A stretch of 64,000 nt of DNA from Phragmitibacter flavus (GTDB lineage: Bacteria; Verrucomicrobiota; Verrucomicrobiia; Verrucomicrobiales; Verrucomicrobiaceae), in contig NZ_VAUV01000002.1 of NCBI RefSeq assembly GCF_005780165.1, forward strand, positions 124,001 through 188,000, in the 5' to 3' direction. Below, one piece after another: positions 6,884 through 23,269 of this stretch; within the stretch, counting starts at the first letter, position 1, and each line of letters opens with the position of its first letter. The notes under the pieces were generated by a model. It saw only the letters and a program-made list of their open reading frames with translations, did no database searches and was not told where the DNA came from. A program made the translations under genes and the position numbers.

Positions 6884-7711
6884 ATGAAAACATCTTTCGC
6901 CGCACTCTTTCTGCTGATCGCTTCAACAGTCATCTCCCAACAGCCAACCACGGTCCCGCAAGGCGAGCCGACCAATGCCAAGGAGGCGGAGGCCCAAAAG
7001 AAGGAGCAGGCGCAACAGAAGCTTGACGAAGAATATGCAGACTTGGTGGCCAAGCTGCCAACGGACCAGCGAGCTTGGGAGAAGGTGCTTCAGGACAATC
7101 TGGGCGGCTTTTATTTTCCCATCCACCAGAAGGAGAAGCTGAGTGGCAAATCCAATGCCTGGGATTTTGTGCAGGATGATCCCACCTTGCCACGGGTGCT
7201 GTTGATCGGTGATTCAGTGTCGCGAGGCTATACGCTGGCAGTTCGCAAGGCCCTCGCGGGCAAAGCGAATGTGCATCGGGCGCCGGAAAATTGTGGTCCG
7301 ACAGCCAATGGACTGAAGAAGATCGACATCTGGCTGGGCGACGGCAAGTGGGATCTGATTCACTTCAACTTCGGCATTCATGATCGTGCCACGCCGCTGC
7401 CTGACTACACGCAAAGGCTGGAGAAGTTGATCGAGCGCATGAAGTCAACGGGAGCGAAACTGATGTGGGCGAGCACCACCCCAATTCCTGATGATGCCGC
7501 CAAAAAACAAACCGCAGTTTCGATCATTGAGCGCAATGAAGCGGCGGCGGAGGTGATGAAAAAGCAGGGTGTAATTGTGAACGATCTCGCTGCGGCCATC
7601 ACCCCACTTCTCGCGACACTACAGAATCCCAACGACGTGCATTTTACGGCTGAGGGATACGAATTTTTAGGGGAGCGGGTGGCAAAGGCGATTGAGTCAG
7701 AGTTGAAGTAG
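6884..7711 (+). CDS. secreted SGNH/GDSL hydrolase
   Basis: Signal peptide (MKTSFAALFLLIASTVIS), then a Lys/Glu/Gln-rich linker of about 50 residues and an SGNH hydrolase domain. The catalytic Ser is in LLIGDSVSRGY (Ser111) and the Asp/His pair is in NDVHFTAEGY (Asp251, His253). Such enzymes in Verrucomicrobiota and Planctomycetes usually act as esterases on acylated polysaccharides. The precise substrate is unknown. It is one of two SGNH hydrolases in the window; the other (29416-30099) is shorter and not closely similar. Confidence 0.85.
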   Translation: MKTSFAALFLLIASTVISQQPTTVPQGEPTNAKEAEAQKKEQAQQKLDEEYADLVAKLPTDQRAWEKVLQDNLGGFYFPIHQKEKLSGKSNAWDFVQDDPTLPRVLLIGDSVSRGYTLAVRKALAGKANVHRAPENCGPTANGLKKIDIWLGDGKWDLIHFNFGIHDRATPLPDYTQRLEKLIERMKSTGAKLMWASTTPIPDDAAKKQTAVSIIERNEAAAEVMKKQGVIVNDLAAAITPLLATLQNPNDVHFTAEGYEFLGERVAKAIESELK

Positions 7712-7733
7712 GTGTCTTCATGAACCAGACCGT

Positions 7734-8585
7734 CTATCTGCCCAGATTAAGCTGGGTTTGATATTCAATGCACACCTTGTTGGCGGATTGATGGAGGTCG
7801 AATAGGCGGCGTAGCTCCGCGATCATTTCAGCATGTCCGGGTTCGCCCTCGACGGGAGCATAGGAGGAGGACATCAAGCGACCTTCAAGGGATGGATGGT
7901 CGAGCCATTGCAAATTGGGGAAGCAGTGGGTGGTGTAGGGGCCGTTGAAAAAGCGAGTCAGTTCGACTGTATCAATTTGCTCGTGGCGAACCTTGGCGTA
8001 GTCGGTGCCGAACCGTAGCAACAAGGCTTCGTAATCGCGAAGAAACGGTGTGCTATCCGAGTCTCGCACGTTCCAGATGAGGGCAATTTGGCCCTTGGGT
8101 TGTGGTTTTGGTTTAAGGATGCGGCTGAATTCCTGGCGTGTTTCCGGCAGGTTAAACCAGTGAAAAGCTTGGGCAGCCACGATCAGATCAACGGATTGGT
8201 CGGGCAGTCCGGTCTCCTGGGCTTTGCCGTTGATGGTGTGAAATTTGGGATAGCCAGAGAGAAGGTTTTCCGCTGCGGTGCGCATTTCCATGTTGGGCTC
8301 CACTCCGAATACGGAGCAGCCAGCTTCGAGGAAAAGTTTGCTGGAAATGCCGGTGCCGGAGCCGATATCGGCGACTGTCGACGCTTCGGAAAGACCGGTT
8401 TCGCGACGCAAAAGGGGCATCATTTCCGCCGGGTAACTGGGGCGGTAGCGCACATAATTGGCCACTCGATTGGAGAATCGCTGTTCCGGCGCGGGTGATT
8501 CTGGAGTTCTCACCGGGCATTTTGGGCGAAAAATCTTGCTCGCGCAAAGCGAAGTCTTGTGGAATGTGCTGTCTGCTAGTCTCAT
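7734..8585 (-). CDS. class I SAM-dependent methyltransferase
   Basis: Rossmann methyltransferase: motif I is VADIGSGTGISSKLFLEAGC, followed by an acidic residue ending strand 2 (VFGVEPN), and a post-I motif in VDLIVAAQAFHWF. The AFHWF signature is typical of the family with an N-terminal RFSNRVANYVRYRPSYP entry motif, of unknown substrate. The ATG at 8585 has an AAGGAAG sequence upstream. A GTG at 8513 would match the family N-terminus better and would leave more room for promoters, because fabV starts only 16 bases away on the other strand. Confidence 0.85.
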   Translation of the reverse strand: MRLADSTFHKTSLCASKIFRPKCPVRTPESPAPEQRFSNRVANYVRYRPSYPAEMMPLLRRETGLSEASTVADIGSGTGISSKLFLEAGCSVFGVEPNMEMRTAAENLLSGYPKFHTINGKAQETGLPDQSVDLIVAAQAFHWFNLPETRQEFSRILKPKPQPKGQIALIWNVRDSDSTPFLRDYEALLLRFGTDYAKVRHEQIDTVELTRFFNGPYTTHCFPNLQWLDHPSLEGRLMSSSYAPVEGEPGHAEMIAELRRLFDLHQSANKVCIEYQTQLNLGR

Positions 8586-19541: not shown

Positions 19542-19869
19542 CACCCGGTTGGGTGAGAATTTCGCTTGCCGAACTCAACACAACAGGGCTTCAGAAGGTT
19601 GTAGTGCGCGGACGGAACCTCGGCATGAGCTTTCGGTAGATTGGGCGTCCGACCGGAAATTCCGTTCATCCCACTTCTCAACCGGACAGAATGTCCGGCA
19701 CACGCACCGACTGAAAGTCCGTGTTACTTCCCACCCAAACTCAAATGGTCTACAACCTCCTCGTCAACCGCAGCGAGTCGCCACCGGGATACATTCAACT
19801 TCATTCGAGTTGAGCGCCCGGATGTAACACAGGTTTTTAACCTGTGCGTGCAACGGACATTCTGTCCGT
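19542..19869. repeat. palindrome-rich spacer (REP-like)
   Basis: This gene-free stretch contains a series of short inverted repeats: CACCC-GGTT-GGGTG (19542-19555), CCGGACA-GAA-TGTCCGG (19682-19698), CACAGGTT-TTT-AACCTGTG (19828-19846) and ACGGACA-TTC-TGTCCGT (19853-19869). A phrase GGCACACGCACCGAC(T/G)GAAAGTC occurs twice, near 19697 and 19900. This looks like decayed dispersed repeats at the left edge of the AT-rich island. The rest of 19447-20200 shows no gene beyond the transposase remnant. Confidence 0.6.
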
Positions 19870-20070
19870 CTCCGATTCCCGCAACCCAAACCGAATGCCC
19901 GGCACACGCACCGACGGAAAGTCAGTTCCGACCATGCCGAACTCGGCAACACGCACCAGCCGTTTATGCCCCGCATTGCGGTTGATGCCGAACTCCTCGC
20001 AGAGTTCCTTGATGGTGAAATGACCGCTGTGGGCTTGACTGACAAATCGTTGTTGTTCCGTAGGAGACAC
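19837..20070 (-). pseudogene. remnant of IS481-type transposase (N-terminal helix-turn-helix)
   Basis: The first 45 residues of this frame (SPTEQQRFVSQAHSGHFTIK, then ELCEEFGINRNAGHKRLVR) match the start of IS481/ISL3-like transposases, where an SPMEQR entry and an ITELCxEFGISRKTGYKW helix-turn-helix are typical. The similarity stops after about 45 residues and the DDE catalytic domain is missing. The opening codon would be GTG. It is a truncated scar of an insertion sequence beside the AT-rich island. Confidence 0.6.
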
Positions 20071-20200: not shown

Positions 20201-20230
20201 TTGACATTTGGTATCAATTGATACCATATT
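20201..20230 (+). promoter_or_regulatory. promoter with embedded 18-bp operator palindrome
   Basis: TTGACA (20201-20206) is followed after 18 bases by CATATT (20225-20230), a reasonable sigma-70 pair. The spacer holds the perfect palindrome TGGTATCAATTGATACCA (20209-20226). This placement is what one expects of an autoregulated toxin-antitoxin operon whose helix-turn-helix antitoxin binds the operator. The first gene starts 40 bases downstream. Confidence 0.7.
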
Positions 20231-20269
20231 AGGTCGTGAGCAATTTTGCATTTCTTTTAATTTCAAACC

Positions 20270-20626
20270 ATGGCACAACAGGAAATCCCGCAAGCTTGGC
20301 GAAAATCTGTTTGCGCGGTCCTGAAGTCGGGCCGCACCGGCTGCGAAATTCTATGGACCAAGGACGCTGTGACTCGGTATGGTGGGGATTTTCTGTCTGT
20401 GTTTCAGAATGATCTTTATCCAGTTCTTATTCAACATTTCAAGGACTCCCAGAATCTTACAGGCTGTTCAGTGACGATGGACAAGCCGTCTGGCATTACA
20501 TACGAGTTTTATTTCCACTTTAAGACAAAGAAGACATACGGGAAGGTGTTGCTTCACACTGATCGTAAAAAAATCACGATCTTCTCTGCGCATCTTCCAC
20601 TCAAACCAAAGCTGTCCTGCGATTGA
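20270..20626 (+). CDS. small protein in toxin position of a putative TAC operon
   Basis: A 118-residue soluble protein. I do not recognise the family. It has an N-terminal helical half and a C-terminal run of predicted beta strands (ITYEFYFHFKTKKTYGKVLL, then KKITIFSAHLPLK), a layout compatible with the small RelE/MqsR-type ribonuclease fold. No catalytic motif can be assigned with confidence. It is the first gene after the operator-containing promoter and is followed after 15 bases by an MqsA-type antitoxin-like gene and then a SecB-like gene, so the toxin role is inferred from position. Codon use is AT-rich compared with flanking DNA. Confidence 0.6.
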   Translation: MAQQEIPQAWRKSVCAVLKSGRTGCEILWTKDAVTRYGGDFLSVFQNDLYPVLIQHFKDSQNLTGCSVTMDKPSGITYEFYFHFKTKKTYGKVLLHTDRKKITIFSAHLPLKPKLSCD

Positions 20627-20641
20627 AGGACTTTACAAGAC

Positions 20642-21277
20642 ATGAAGACGAAATACGAAGATTTTGATGTGCTGATTCCAAATTTTGAAGGAACGGACAT
20701 CGCCGAACGCATAAAAGTAATAATCCCTCTTCGGTTTGACGAGGAAACTGGGGATTGGGTTCTGACCGAAGAGGCACATGAAATTATCGAAAGCACTAAG
20801 GCACGTCACATGGGGCTTTTATTGCCTGAGCAATTTAAGTTGTTGCGCAAACGATTGAATCTCAGCCAAAAAGAAATGGGGGAGCTCTTCCAAGTAGGGG
20901 AGAAGAGCTGGACGCGTTGGGAGTCAGGCAACCAACGACCCAGTAGGGTAATTAGCCTTCTTATAAAAGGTGTTTTTGAGGGGGCCATTCCAGTCAACTA
21001 CCTACTAAAACAGGCGGGCAAACAGCCAATATCAGATTGTGGATTTGAATCTAATCGATGGTGGGAAATACTCTCTTCTATGGACTCAGAGTCGAATGCA
21101 AACTGGCCGTTTATACGAGATAGATCTGATACAGCTATTCTCGGAATTGGGCTCCAAGAAAACTCAAGAAATGCTTCTTGTAATGCCATACACGGTTTCA
21201 CTAAATGGGTTCCAAAATTAGAAATGATTTTGTGTTACAGCAATGAACAAAAAAATTATACTGCTGAAGTGTCATGA
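20642..21277 (+). CDS. MqsA/XRE-type antitoxin-like regulator with long C-terminal extension
   Basis: A 211-residue protein. Residues 60-120 form an XRE helix-turn-helix of the MqsA antitoxin type (LLRKRLNLSQKEMGELFQVG, then EKSWTRWESGNQRPSR). Upstream, TGDWVLTEEAHEIIESTKAR resembles the linker of that family, but the N-terminal zinc-binding CxxC pairs of MqsA are absent. After the HTH there is an 80-residue extension, richer in Trp, Asn and Ser. Antitoxins of SecB-linked TAC systems need such a chaperone-addiction (ChAD) tail. It overlaps the SecB-like gene by 4 bases (ATGA). Confidence 0.75.
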   Translation: MKTKYEDFDVLIPNFEGTDIAERIKVIIPLRFDEETGDWVLTEEAHEIIESTKARHMGLLLPEQFKLLRKRLNLSQKEMGELFQVGEKSWTRWESGNQRPSRVISLLIKGVFEGAIPVNYLLKQAGKQPISDCGFESNRWWEILSSMDSESNANWPFIRDRSDTAILGIGLQENSRNASCNAIHGFTKWVPKLEMILCYSNEQKNYTAEVS

Positions 21278-21747
21278 ATCTCTCCCCTCTGCAATTGATT
21301 CGCTATTTGGTGCCGGAGATTAGCTGCGTCGCTAACGAACATTACGATGTGGAGCGCTCTTCGGACCTCAACGACAATACGTTCAAGGTCGAATCTCAAA
21401 TTTACCCTTTGGAATCTAAAGAGCCGAAAAAATATACAGCCTGGAGTGTAGAGTTGGATTTATGCCAGCTTCCTGACGAGAGTGCTAACATTCCATATCA
21501 ATTCAAAGTAAAAATTGTTGGATTATTCCGATGCAGTAAGAAAAAAGCAGATCTTACTCCGGAGGTTTTCGTCCGCACAAACGGAAGTTCGATCTTATAC
21601 GGTATTGCGCGTGAAACACTGCGTAGCATCACCTCCGTAGGTCCATGGGGTGACATGCTTTTACCAACCATTTCATTTTACAAGGAACCAGCCGCAGATA
21701 AGCCACTGATTCCCAAAAAATCTAGGGAACGGAAAGAGAAAAAATAG
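21274..21747 (+). CDS. SecB-like chaperone (putative TAC chaperone)
   Basis: A 157-residue protein whose second half follows the SecB pattern: a beta strand ending VGLFRC, then SSILYGIARETLRSITSVGP and WGDMLLPTISFYKEP. These correspond to the SecB stretches around GIF, NILFPYAREC and LAPVNF. The N-terminal half also has the expected beta layout. The C-terminus is a basic tail (KKSRERKEKK) rather than the acidic tail of export SecB. Its overlap with an antitoxin-like gene argues for a toxin-antitoxin-chaperone role rather than general protein export. Confidence 0.75.
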   Translation: MNLSPLQLIRYLVPEISCVANEHYDVERSSDLNDNTFKVESQIYPLESKEPKKYTAWSVELDLCQLPDESANIPYQFKVKIVGLFRCSKKKADLTPEVFVRTNGSSILYGIARETLRSITSVGPWGDMLLPTISFYKEPAADKPLIPKKSRERKEKK

Positions 21748-21820
21748 CATTTCTCTATATCATAATGGAAACACATTTCAGCTGTAATACAGGACTCGAT
21801 TGCCCGAATCCAATTCTTTG

Positions 21821-23269
21821 ATGTTAGGAAAAACTAAGGGGTTTTCGGATTTCAAATGCGACATGAAAAAACCACCCATATTCTATCTGATCGAGAGTGT
21901 AAAGATCACCATTTGGATCGCAATAATCGCGAAAGTTTTTTTCGTTGATTTTGACGAATTGATTGTTTCGCATTGGTTTCCACAGGGTAGATGGTTTTTG
22001 GACCACGGATTCTTGTTTAGTCTCTTCATGTTTGCGTTGGCGCTCATATTTATGGGAGGCAAAAAAATTGCCTATTTCGTATCATCGATATTGTTGTATC
22101 CTTTTTTGTTGGCATGGCGCTTAACAAAGAGATTTGCGATTCATTGGCCCATTCTGTTTGCAATAATTCCGGCGCTTCATGAGCTGTCTGGGAGAATTAA
22201 GGCCGTATTTATTTCTTACGTATTTTTTCTTTTCTCCATTCTGGTAATCTTTACTAGCGATTGGAGACCATCAATAGTAATTTCGCTATGTTATTTGGCT
22301 GTTTTTTTGACGCTTCATTACGCAAGTGCGATCAAGCGAGCCTATGCAGCAAATGTTTTCAGAGGGATGGCCAAATTTGCGGGAAAGATTAGAATGGCGA
22401 TCGCCGACGGGATTCTAGAAAAGCGGCCCCGAACCAAAAATTTTGCTGAAATAGAAGCGCTAAATCAAGTAGATAATAAAGCAACAATCGCTCAGGTAGA
22501 ACATCGCTGGACATACTACTTAACTGATAATCTCATTAATTATATCGAGAGTAAGTTCACGGATTTCACGCATTCAAGAAAGTTTGAGCTGATGTTGATG
22601 GTCTCTCTAGTTTATACGTTTCTCCTAACGACTGTGACATTTGCGCTGATATATAGTGCAATATTTATGCTTAATGCACAGGCATTTTCCATTGGGAGTA
22701 ATACTTCATTTTGGAGTTTTCTAGGCTTAAGCTTGAGCCGTATGACCGCGTCTGGTTTATCCGAGCTTGTAGCACATTCAAACCTGGCAATCGCCGCTTC
22801 TCATTTCCAGTCGGTCTTCCAGATGGGCATGATAGTGCTATTCGTTTTCATATTATTGACATCCAAAAGAGAGAGATTCTATCAAGGAGCTCTCGAGTTT
22901 AAAGAGGAGTTGACTAAAATTGCGAAAGCAATTGAAGAAAGGGTATTTTTTGTAACCGATCAAACACTCGAAGCAGTTGAATTGGATTTGAGTTCTTCTA
23001 ATGGAAGCGTTGTGAATTTCATTCGTAAACTGAGGGGTAAACCTGAGATGGTGTTAGTCGGATCTACCGACTCAGGGACAATCGTTACGCCTTCCGATAG
23101 TCCATCTTCTGCCAATCAAATTGACATTGGCGTTCTTTCCGAAAGGAAAGGCTTTGTCTACCCACCTGGCCGGGAACCAATTGAATCAAATTTAGTAGAT
23201 GTCAGGGACTTCAATAAGGGCCAAAAAGTTCGCGATCCGGTATCACTCAAAATATTTATCGTGCCATAA
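21821..23269 (+). CDS. orphan multi-pass membrane protein (island gene)
   Basis: I do not recognise the family. The 482-residue product has four hydrophobic helices in the first 165 residues, then an amphipathic charged region (170-240), then two or three further helices (about 255-350). The segment FWSFLGLSLSRMTASGLSEL between the last two helices resembles a pore loop of ion channels but lacks a K+ filter. After the last helix comes a 120-residue soluble tail ending VDVRDFNKGQKVRDPVSLKI plus FIVP. It lies 73 bases after the SecB-like gene and shares its AT-rich composition. A TTG at 21800 or ATG 21863 are other starts. Confidence 0.6.
   Translation: MLGKTKGFSDFKCDMKKPPIFYLIESVKITIWIAIIAKVFFVDFDELIVSHWFPQGRWFLDHGFLFSLFMFALALIFMGGKKIAYFVSSILLYPFLLAWRLTKRFAIHWPILFAIIPALHELSGRIKAVFISYVFFLFSILVIFTSDWRPSIVISLCYLAVFLTLHYASAIKRAYAANVFRGMAKFAGKIRMAIADGILEKRPRTKNFAEIEALNQVDNKATIAQVEHRWTYYLTDNLINYIESKFTDFTHSRKFELMLMVSLVYTFLLTTVTFALIYSAIFMLNAQAFSIGSNTSFWSFLGLSLSRMTASGLSELVAHSNLAIAASHFQSVFQMGMIVLFVFILLTSKRERFYQGALEFKEELTKIAKAIEERVFFVTDQTLEAVELDLSSSNGSVVNFIRKLRGKPEMVLVGSTDSGTIVTPSDSPSSANQIDIGVLSERKGFVYPPGREPIESNLVDVRDFNKGQKVRDPVSLKIFIVP

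What the first reader, a model, noticed from the sequence alone, without database searches (positions are those of the whole stretch)
20201..21747. Candidate toxin-antitoxin-chaperone (TAC) operon with a SecB-like third gene
Seen: three genes in close order (118, 211 and 157 residues; gap 15 bases, then a 4-base overlap) in an AT-rich island. Gene 2 has an XRE/MqsA-type helix-turn-helix plus an 80-residue C-terminal extension. Gene 3 follows the SecB pattern around ILYGIARETLRSI and MLLPTISF. Known: TAC systems pair a toxin and an antitoxin, made unstable by a ChAD tail, with a SecB-like chaperone; examples are HigBA-Rv1957 of M. tuberculosis and the phage-defence system CmdTAC. Inferred: the extension is a ChAD and gene 1 the toxin. 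Gene 1 belongs to no toxin family I recognise, so this may be a new TAC class.
Basis: partly seen in the sequence, partly recalled or inferred. Interest (0 to 1): 0.85.

Follow-up and report, generated by a model that had tools for sequence, protein, structure and literature searches.

The report
Divergent MqsR-type toxin-antitoxin-chaperone operon
Three neighbouring genes look like a bacterial self-poisoning switch (toxin, antitoxin and helper chaperone) of a known type but with an unrecognised toxin family, and its relatives have or lack the chaperone together with the antitoxin's long tail, a natural experiment on how such switches are wired.

Summary
Window 20270-21747 holds a co-directional toxin-antitoxin-SecB triad behind one promoter and one perfect palindrome. 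Gene 3 is a SecB-family chaperone by profile and by predicted fold (Z 12.8). Gene 2 has an MqsA-type helix-turn-helix, lacks MqsA's zinc cysteines and carries a long C-terminal tail. Gene 1 matches no family in four libraries, but its confident model has the fold of the MqsR toxin (Z 9.3, 91 residues, 2.6 A), with an invariant Ser-x-His near MqsR's C-terminal lysine. So this is not a new class: it is a divergent, MqsRA-like TAC, a kind already in print. New here: (1) an unannotated toxin family, in 12 of 387 genomes sampled from the phylum; (2) an operator, GTATCAATTGATAC, exact in 28 of 43 loci; (3) at least 7 changes in chaperone presence on the family tree, the long antitoxin tail going with the chaperone and never the other way. 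That is natural evidence that the tail is the chaperone-addiction element. Four relatives lie between hmaA and hmaB of an Hma-type defence locus. Toxicity, neutralisation and phage defence are inferred, not shown.

The parts
20201..20230 (+). sigma-70-type promoter: TTGACA, 18-base spacer, CATATT
   Evidence: 10 of 12 consensus matches (6 promoter-like sites in the region against 6.3 expected by chance, so weak on its own); TTGAC stands just upstream of the palindrome in 26 of the 37 loci whose palindrome has at most 2 mismatches
20210..20225 (.). operator palindrome GGTATCAATTGATACC in the promoter spacer
   Evidence: perfect 16-base palindrome, the only site in the 5.9 Mb genome within 2 mismatches; core TATCAATTGATA exact upstream of the operon in 28 of 43 loci
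20270..20626 (+). gene 1, toxin, 118 aa; MqsR-fold ribonuclease predicted; Y90, K92, S106 and H108 (codons 20537-20539, 20543-20545, 20585-20587, 20591-20593) are the candidate active-site residues
   Evidence: AlphaFold2 mean pLDDT 95.7; VIA-align Z 9.3 to MqsR 3hi2; K92, S106 and H108 in 38 of 38 family members, Y90 in 36 of 38
20642..21277 (+). gene 2, antitoxin, 211 aa, zinc-less MqsA-like
   Evidence: TIGR03830 1.8e-12; hhalign to E. coli MqsA 6.8e-9 over the HTH; no CxxC in the 45 residues before the core, 0 of 38 readable loci
20831..20953 (+). helix-turn-helix of gene 2 (residues 64-104), predicted to bind the palindrome
   Evidence: Pfam HTH_31 6.8e-6
21005..21274 (+). C-terminal tail of gene 2 (residues 122-211), candidate chaperone-addiction (ChAD) region with 4 Trp
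   Evidence: tail comparison with and without the SecB gene
21274..21747 (+). gene 3, SecB-like chaperone, 157 aa
   Evidence: profile to PDB SecB 2e-5; Foldseek 4.8e-6 and VIA Z 12.8 to SecB, Z 10.7 to Rv1957

Best explanation
The operon is a tripartite toxin-antitoxin-chaperone system that works like an MqsRA-type TAC. Gene 1 is an MqsR-fold RNase-type toxin. Gene 2 neutralises it and, through its helix-turn-helix on the 20210-20225 palindrome, represses the operon. The aromatic-rich C-terminal tail of gene 2 makes it unstable unless the SecB-like gene 3 binds the tail. When the chaperone is drawn away (by phage structural proteins in studied TACs), the antitoxin is lost and the toxin stops growth. 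Shown here: anatomy, predicted folds, operator conservation, tail-chaperone association. Inferred: toxicity, RNA cleavage, chaperone dependence, trigger.
For: Triad in the same order and strand in 28 of 43 loci. SecB fold. MqsR fold of gene 1, Z 9.3 against 6.3 and below for the other RelE-type toxins listed. The toxin comes first, as in E. coli mqsRA. Exact operator core in 28 of 43 loci; all 28 copies in 454 kb lie just upstream of the operon or, in L040, of a lone antitoxin. Tail median 48 residues (23-109) with SecB, 29 loci, against 31 (5-38) without, 10 loci; Trp in the tail 22 of 29 against 0 of 10. Tree: at least 7 changes of chaperone state on well supported branches; in about 6.9 of 7 independent pairs the member with SecB has the longer tail at a 39-42 residue cut, p about 0.016; at none of 8 cuts did a pair go the other way. 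No SecB match elsewhere in the genome at E <= 0.001.
Against: No functional data. Gene 1 shares no detectable sequence with E. coli MqsR (hhalign probability 0.1), so toxin identity rests on a predicted fold and gene order. The window's own antitoxin ends in EVS, not the AA end of many relatives, and AA ends did not track SecB in independent pairs. Trp in the tail, tested by pairs, reaches only p 0.125. L084 has SecB but a 23-residue tail without aromatic residues. The tail-length cut was chosen after seeing the data. One search also missed gene 3 itself, so other divergent SecBs could have been missed.
Confidence: 0.85

Rival explanations
1. Toxin-antitoxin pair with a passenger chaperone: gene 2 folds and neutralises by itself, and gene 3 is an ordinary or phage-sensing chaperone that the pair does not need.
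For: 8 of 36 decidable loci have toxin and antitoxin without gene 3, so the pair can exist alone; L084 keeps SecB with a short tail.
Against: The forms without chaperone have shorter, Trp-free tails, and the length association holds across independent changes; genes 2 and 3 overlap by 4 bases.
Confidence: 0.1
2. Gene 1 is an MqsR-fold protein whose target is not mRNA, or is not a toxin.
For: Of the MqsR residues needed for toxicity (K56, Q68, Y81, K96; PMC2791442 passages) only the Tyr is clearly kept; no sequence family.
Against: Invariant K92, S106 and H108 and a near-invariant Tyr on the two C-terminal strands, beside an antitoxin in every toxin locus seen; the C-terminal His resembles the catalytic His of YoeB named in the same paper.
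Confidence: 0.12
3. Gene 3 is this bacterium's export chaperone and the neighbourhood is accidental.
For: SecB fold; no other SecB match in the genome.
Against: Gene 3 accompanies this antitoxin in 30 of 43 loci, and its presence goes with the antitoxin tail.
Confidence: 0.03
4. The operon serves stress response or island maintenance rather than phage defence in this genome.
For: Its neighbour gene 4 (21800-23269) matched no PADLOC family; the GC dip suggests acquisition.
Against: Several relatives lie in or beside defence loci; an E. coli TAC reported as MqsRAC defends against T2 (PMC9519451 passages).
Confidence: 0.35

Closest known systems
MqsRA-type TACs (V. cholerae RC385 Vcho-TAC; an E. 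coli C496_10 system reported as MqsRAC)
   Same: Toxin, MqsA-family antitoxin with C-terminal extension, SecB-like chaperone (PMC5105189, PMC9519451; passages).
   Different: Gene 1 has no MqsR Pfam match and gene 2 no zinc cysteines. I did not compare with the published toxins' sequences. A later paper speaks of higBAC of E. coli C496 (PMC11980606 passage), so the toxin family of the E. coli system is unsure.
E. coli K-12 MqsRA
   Same: MqsR fold; HTH homology of the antitoxin; gene order.
   Different: Antitoxin with a zinc domain and no long tail; no chaperone gene in the stretch seen.
HigBA1-Rv1957 TAC of M. tuberculosis
   Same: SecB-like chaperone (Z 10.7 to 5mtw); antitoxin tail with Trp, as in the ChAD peptide (PMC6377645 passages).
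   Different: Its HigB toxin is a weaker fold match (7nbu Z 4.5).
CmdTAC
   Same: Three-gene TAC with a SecB-like chaperone; CmdA ends LAA (PMC11618068 passages), as several relatives here end in AA.
   Different: Its toxin is an ADP-ribosyltransferase.
Unnamed toxin + MqsA-family antitoxin + SecB on Thiodictyon and Cupriavidus plasmids
   Same: Same layout; toxins end in Y-x-x-K ... S-x-H.
   Different: Antitoxins keep cysteine pairs; toxin similarity to gene 1 is too weak to prove kinship.

Membership tests
TAC system | toxin, antitoxin and SecB-like chaperone genes together, same strand and order | tested here: met
TAC system | third gene has the SecB fold | tested here: met
TAC system | antitoxin carries a C-terminal extension that two-gene homologues lack | tested here: met
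   one exception, L084
TAC system | toxin inhibition requires antitoxin plus chaperone | not testable with these tools
   needs growth assays
MqsR toxin | sequence match to the MqsR family (PF15723) | tested here: not met
   0 of 31 members match it at E <= 1, while E. coli MqsR scores 5.5e-35
MqsR toxin | MqsR three-dimensional fold | tested here: met
   predicted model, Z 9.3, rmsd 2.6, 91 aligned to 3hi2_D
MqsR toxin | toxicity residues K56, Q68, Y81, K96 | tested here: inconclusive
   sequence alignment only: Tyr kept, His aligned with K96; K56 and Q68 cannot be placed reliably; residues from PMC2791442
MqsA antitoxin | N-terminal zinc domain with CxxC pairs | tested here: not met
   0 of 38 readable loci in the 45 residues before the core; none seen further up in the alignment
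MqsA antitoxin | MqsA-type HTH | tested here: met
   scores below curated cut-offs
CmdTAC | ADP-ribosyltransferase toxin | tested here: inconclusive
   none among the PDB fold matches shown for gene 1, which does not exclude it
HigB TAC toxin | HigB-type toxin | tested here: inconclusive
   HigB structures at Z 4.0 to 5.2 against 9.3 for MqsR

The most novel reading that the evidence does not exclude
A Verrucomicrobiota-centred TAC lineage whose MqsR-fold toxin has taken on a YoeB-like histidine chemistry, and which is built into restriction-type defence loci (hmaA-TAC-hmaB, beside pglZ and type IIG genes) as a second line of defence: if a phage disables or escapes the first system, phage protein titrates the SecB and frees the toxin. 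Chaperone addiction is an evolutionary switch that this lineage has flipped at least seven times by gaining or losing tail and chaperone together.
Probability: 0.25. Interest if true: 0.78.

Novelty: new variant of a known kind. Interest (0 to 1): 0.55.

Why it matters
TACs are a recent class of phage-sensing systems, and in the papers seen here chaperone dependence was studied by grafting and swapping antitoxin tails in the laboratory (PMC5105189). This family offers natural pairs of close relatives with and without chaperone and long tail (for example L021 and L041, or L027 and L029), so the origin and loss of chaperone addiction becomes directly testable. It also gives a recognisable signature (operator plus toxin profile) for a toxin family that the copies of Pfam, NCBIfam, PHROGs and PADLOC used here do not see.

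Tried and rejected
New TAC class: rejected, because the predicted fold of gene 1 is MqsR's. Sequence kinship of gene 1 with MqsR: not detectable. DUF4258 toxins, which also occur fused to MqsA (PMC11980606 passage): no member of the gene 1 family matched that or any other Pfam model beyond single-member chance hits. AA ends of the antitoxin as a ClpXP-type mark tied to SecB: 17 of 29 with SecB against 2 of 10 without, p 0.065, and no trend in independent pairs, so not claimed. PF15723 in 194 genomes of the phylum: nothing, but the control genomes rang nowhere either, so uninformative. Gene 1 or gene 2 relatives: none for gene 1 on plasmids or in phages, none for gene 2 of L021 on plasmids or for the window's gene 2 in phages. 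Single-protein hits G006, G050, G102 and G305 are not among the profile hits. Viral fold library for gene 1: no match at E <= 0.001. Literature: operator string in no held paper; Verrucomicrobia + toxin-antitoxin + SecB gave 2 papers, seen as listing with the start of the abstracts, neither on this by title; DISARM + SecB + MqsA none; an Hma search and a SecB/antitoxin/defence island/BREX search were seen as listings only.

Full report
What is there. Genes of 118, 211 and 157 residues lie on the + strand at 20270-20626, 20642-21277 and 21274-21747, with a 15-base gap and a 4-base overlap. GC falls to 0.40-0.45 over 20-23 kb against 0.52-0.62 in the rest of the window. A TTGACA/CATATT promoter-like site starts at 20201 (such sites are no more frequent in the region than in shuffles), and a perfect palindrome, GGTATCAATTGATACC, lies in its spacer at 20210-20225. 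It is the only such site in the 5.9 Mb genome within 2 mismatches.

Gene 3 is SecB-like. Alone it matches Pfam SecB at only E 0.014, and a search with its single sequence finds no solved structure. But all 26 aligned relatives match Pfam SecB at E <= 1, best 2.3e-11, and their profile finds solved SecB at 2e-5. The model (mean pLDDT 91.6) matches SecB at Foldseek 4.8e-6 and VIA Z 12.8, rmsd 3.8, 131 aligned; the M. tuberculosis TAC chaperone Rv1957 scores Z 10.7. The Pfam SecB search of this genome found nothing at E <= 0.001. That search also missed gene 3 itself, so other divergent SecBs cannot be excluded.

Gene 2 is a variant of the MqsA antitoxin. Its HTH matches TIGR03830 at 1.8e-12 and Pfam MqsA at 7.9e-7, both below the curated cut-offs, and the family profile matches E. 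coli MqsA at 6.8e-9 over the HTH. No CxxC pair stands in the 45 residues before the core in 38 of 38 loci that could be read. Beyond the core it has a 90-residue tail.

Gene 1 belongs to no family in Pfam, NCBIfam, PHROGs or PADLOC: 31 members were scanned, and each listed match is to one member only and looks like chance. Its model is very confident (mean pLDDT 95.7). The best solved match is E. coli MqsR, 3hi2: Foldseek probability 1.00 but E 0.013; VIA Z 9.3, rmsd 2.6, 91 of 91 target residues at 12% identity. RelE, HigB, BrnT and YoeB-type toxins follow at Z 6.3 and below. Sequence comparison with MqsR finds nothing. K92, S106 and H108 are kept in 38 of 38 members and Y90 in 36 of 38. By sequence alignment Y90 sits at MqsR Y81, and Ser-x-His at MqsR Ser94-Phe-Lys96; the end of the structural alignment (106 with 95) would place that strand one residue off. 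MqsR needs K56, Q68, Y81 and K96 and lacks the catalytic histidine of YoeB (PMC2791442, passages). A YoeB-like histidine chemistry in an MqsR fold is therefore a plausible inference, not a result.

Relatives. A profile of gene 1 hits 12 of 387 genomes sampled from the phylum and 12 of 384 from the class at E <= 0.001; the samples overlap, 19 genomes in all. An antitoxin-profile scan of the species-genome collection returned 31 loci. Most titles name Verrucomicrobia, Lentisphaerae, Kiritimatiellae or groups within them; the others are unnamed bacteria, a PVC bacterium and one 'Blastochloris' MAG, which by matching coordinates is a genome grouped in the window's class. One viral contig, L058, carries the full triad. 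The profiles came from this phylum, so the searches favour it; other phyla were not scanned with gene 1 except through plasmid and phage records (none).

After removing duplicates there are 43 distinct loci including the window. 28 have all three genes, 28 of 28 in the same order and strand; 10 have toxin and antitoxin, two of which end at a contig edge (L046, L057); 3 have the antitoxin alone; 2 have antitoxin and SecB at contig edges. So 8 of 36 decidable toxin loci lack the chaperone. Most of the 43 were found through the antitoxin, so its presence is partly built in. Of the 19 genomes found through gene 1, 19 have gene 2 (one degenerate, L023) and 14 have gene 3 (G520 taken as L044).

The operator. 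The 12-mer TATCAATTGATA occurs exactly just upstream in 28 of 43 loci, flanked by G and C in 28 of 28 (GTATCAATTGATAC), and these are the only 28 copies in 454 kb. Nine more loci have one or two mismatches; six have no clear site (L023, L025, L032, L036, and L048 and L055, which are cut at the contig start). It also precedes the lone antitoxin of L040. The antitoxins are 30-45% identical to the window's in 28 of 33 comparisons, so such a site marks the likely operator of this family. No held paper contains the string.

Tail and chaperone. I compared the antitoxin tail, meaning residues after the conserved core, in 29 loci with SecB and 10 without. Dropped first: L046 and L057 (contig end), L023 and L056 (broken antitoxin), L080 and L081 (duplicates of L039 and L049). 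L032, counted as without, has only 401 bases downstream. Median length is 48 (23-109) against 31 (5-38), p 8e-6; median aromatic residues 5 against 1, p 2e-5; Trp present in 22 of 29 against 0 of 10, p 3e-5; AA at the end in 17 of 29 against 2 of 10, p 0.065. These p-values ignore kinship. On a tree of antitoxin core plus toxin, the chaperone state needs 9 changes, no fewer than shuffled labels (mean 9.1), and at least 7 on well supported branches. In 7 independent pairs, tail length at a cut of 39-42 goes with the chaperone in 6.9 on average, p about 0.016; other cuts give 3.9 to 5.4 of 7 and p 0.06-0.125. Aromatic count of 3 or more gives 6.3, p 0.03; Trp 4.2, p 0.125; AA ends show no trend. 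No pair went the other way at any length cut from 20 to 48. The best cut was chosen after seeing the data, and gain cannot be told from loss. L084 (SecB, 23-residue tail) is a real exception.

Neighbourhood. I took up to two nearest ORFs on each side (134, called mechanically), scanned the 106 of at least 140 aa against PADLOC at E <= 1e-20, and did the same for 75 control ORFs from 13 of 17 arbitrary stretches of genomes that carry the system (ORFs under 140 aa and one of 3374 aa left out). Only the first 25 of 239 and of 92 matched families are shown. The case list is led by DISARM/Hma/BREX-type helicase models (up to 6 ORFs each), with HmaB methylases (3) and type I specificity subunits (3). 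The control list shows restriction-modification subunits, DarG and PDC candidates, one or two ORFs each, and none of the helicase or HmaB models. In L025, L047, L049 and L053 the toxin-antitoxin genes lie between hmaA and hmaB. In L083 and L049 the called start of the next gene, pglZ or hmaB, overlaps the end of the SecB gene. L086 is followed by a type IIG enzyme. In one search the seven queries came from the case loci and the Thiodictyon locus, which favours case hits; 1 of 17 control stretches matched (HsdS). Two of ten neighbours scanned singly matched nothing (L082, L022). The window's own neighbour, gene 4, matched no PADLOC model, so defence in this genome rests on its relatives.

Outside the phylum. 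A Thiodictyon plasmid has an unnamed 106-residue protein, an MqsA-family antitoxin, SecB and then drmA of DISARM. Cupriavidus has the same triad, and Mitsuaria the pair without SecB. Their toxins end in Y-x-x-K ... S-x-H as gene 1 does, but profile scores are too weak to prove kinship (0.0023 at best, in a set of 4 sequences). The forward primer printed for the V. cholerae 'MqsR' TAC (PMC5105189, passages) encodes a start resembling the Cupriavidus toxin, a hint only.

What is known. HigBA, HicAB and MqsRA TACs, the ChAD tail and its transfer are established (PMC5105189, PMC6377645; passages). A TAC of E. coli C496_10, reported as MqsRAC, defends against T2, and its toxin is rescued only by antitoxin plus chaperone (PMC9519451, passages); a later paper speaks of higBAC of E. 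coli C496 (PMC11980606, passage), so that toxin's family is unsure. CmdTAC is triggered by T4 capsid protein competing for the chaperone (PMC11618068, passages). The window operon works like an MqsRA-type TAC. I do not file it as a member of the MqsRA family, because the Pfam match and the zinc domain were tested and not met.

Verdict. A real and very probably functional TAC; a new variant of a known kind. Its value is the unannotated toxin family, the near-invariant operator and the repeated paired change of tail and chaperone.

Noticed in passing
window 21800-23269: 489-residue protein with six hydrophobic segments in the same AT-rich island, no family. Apart from itself, the matches listed cover only about its last 30-80 residues, in frames of varied length; 10 of 19 related genomes match, own included, with 3 matches in this genome.
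   Followed up: partly
window 19837-20070 (-): Short ORF just upstream of the operon that looks, from recall, like the N-terminus of an IS-type transposase: a possible remnant of the mobile element that brought the island.
   Followed up: no
L025, L047, L049, L053: Toxin-antitoxin(-chaperone) genes lying between hmaA and hmaB of an Hma-type defence locus.
   Followed up: partly
L058 5000-8169: Full triad on an IMG/VR contig, with an integrase-like ORF (by eye) at 7012-8169 (-): possible provirus carriage.
   Followed up: no
L020 5654-5905 (-): Second, truncated SecB-like fragment about 1 kb downstream of a complete triad, perhaps the remnant of a second TAC.
   Followed up: no
L088 (Thiodictyon plasmid pTs485): MqsA-family TAC with an unannotated toxin directly upstream of the DISARM gene drmA.
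   Followed up: partly
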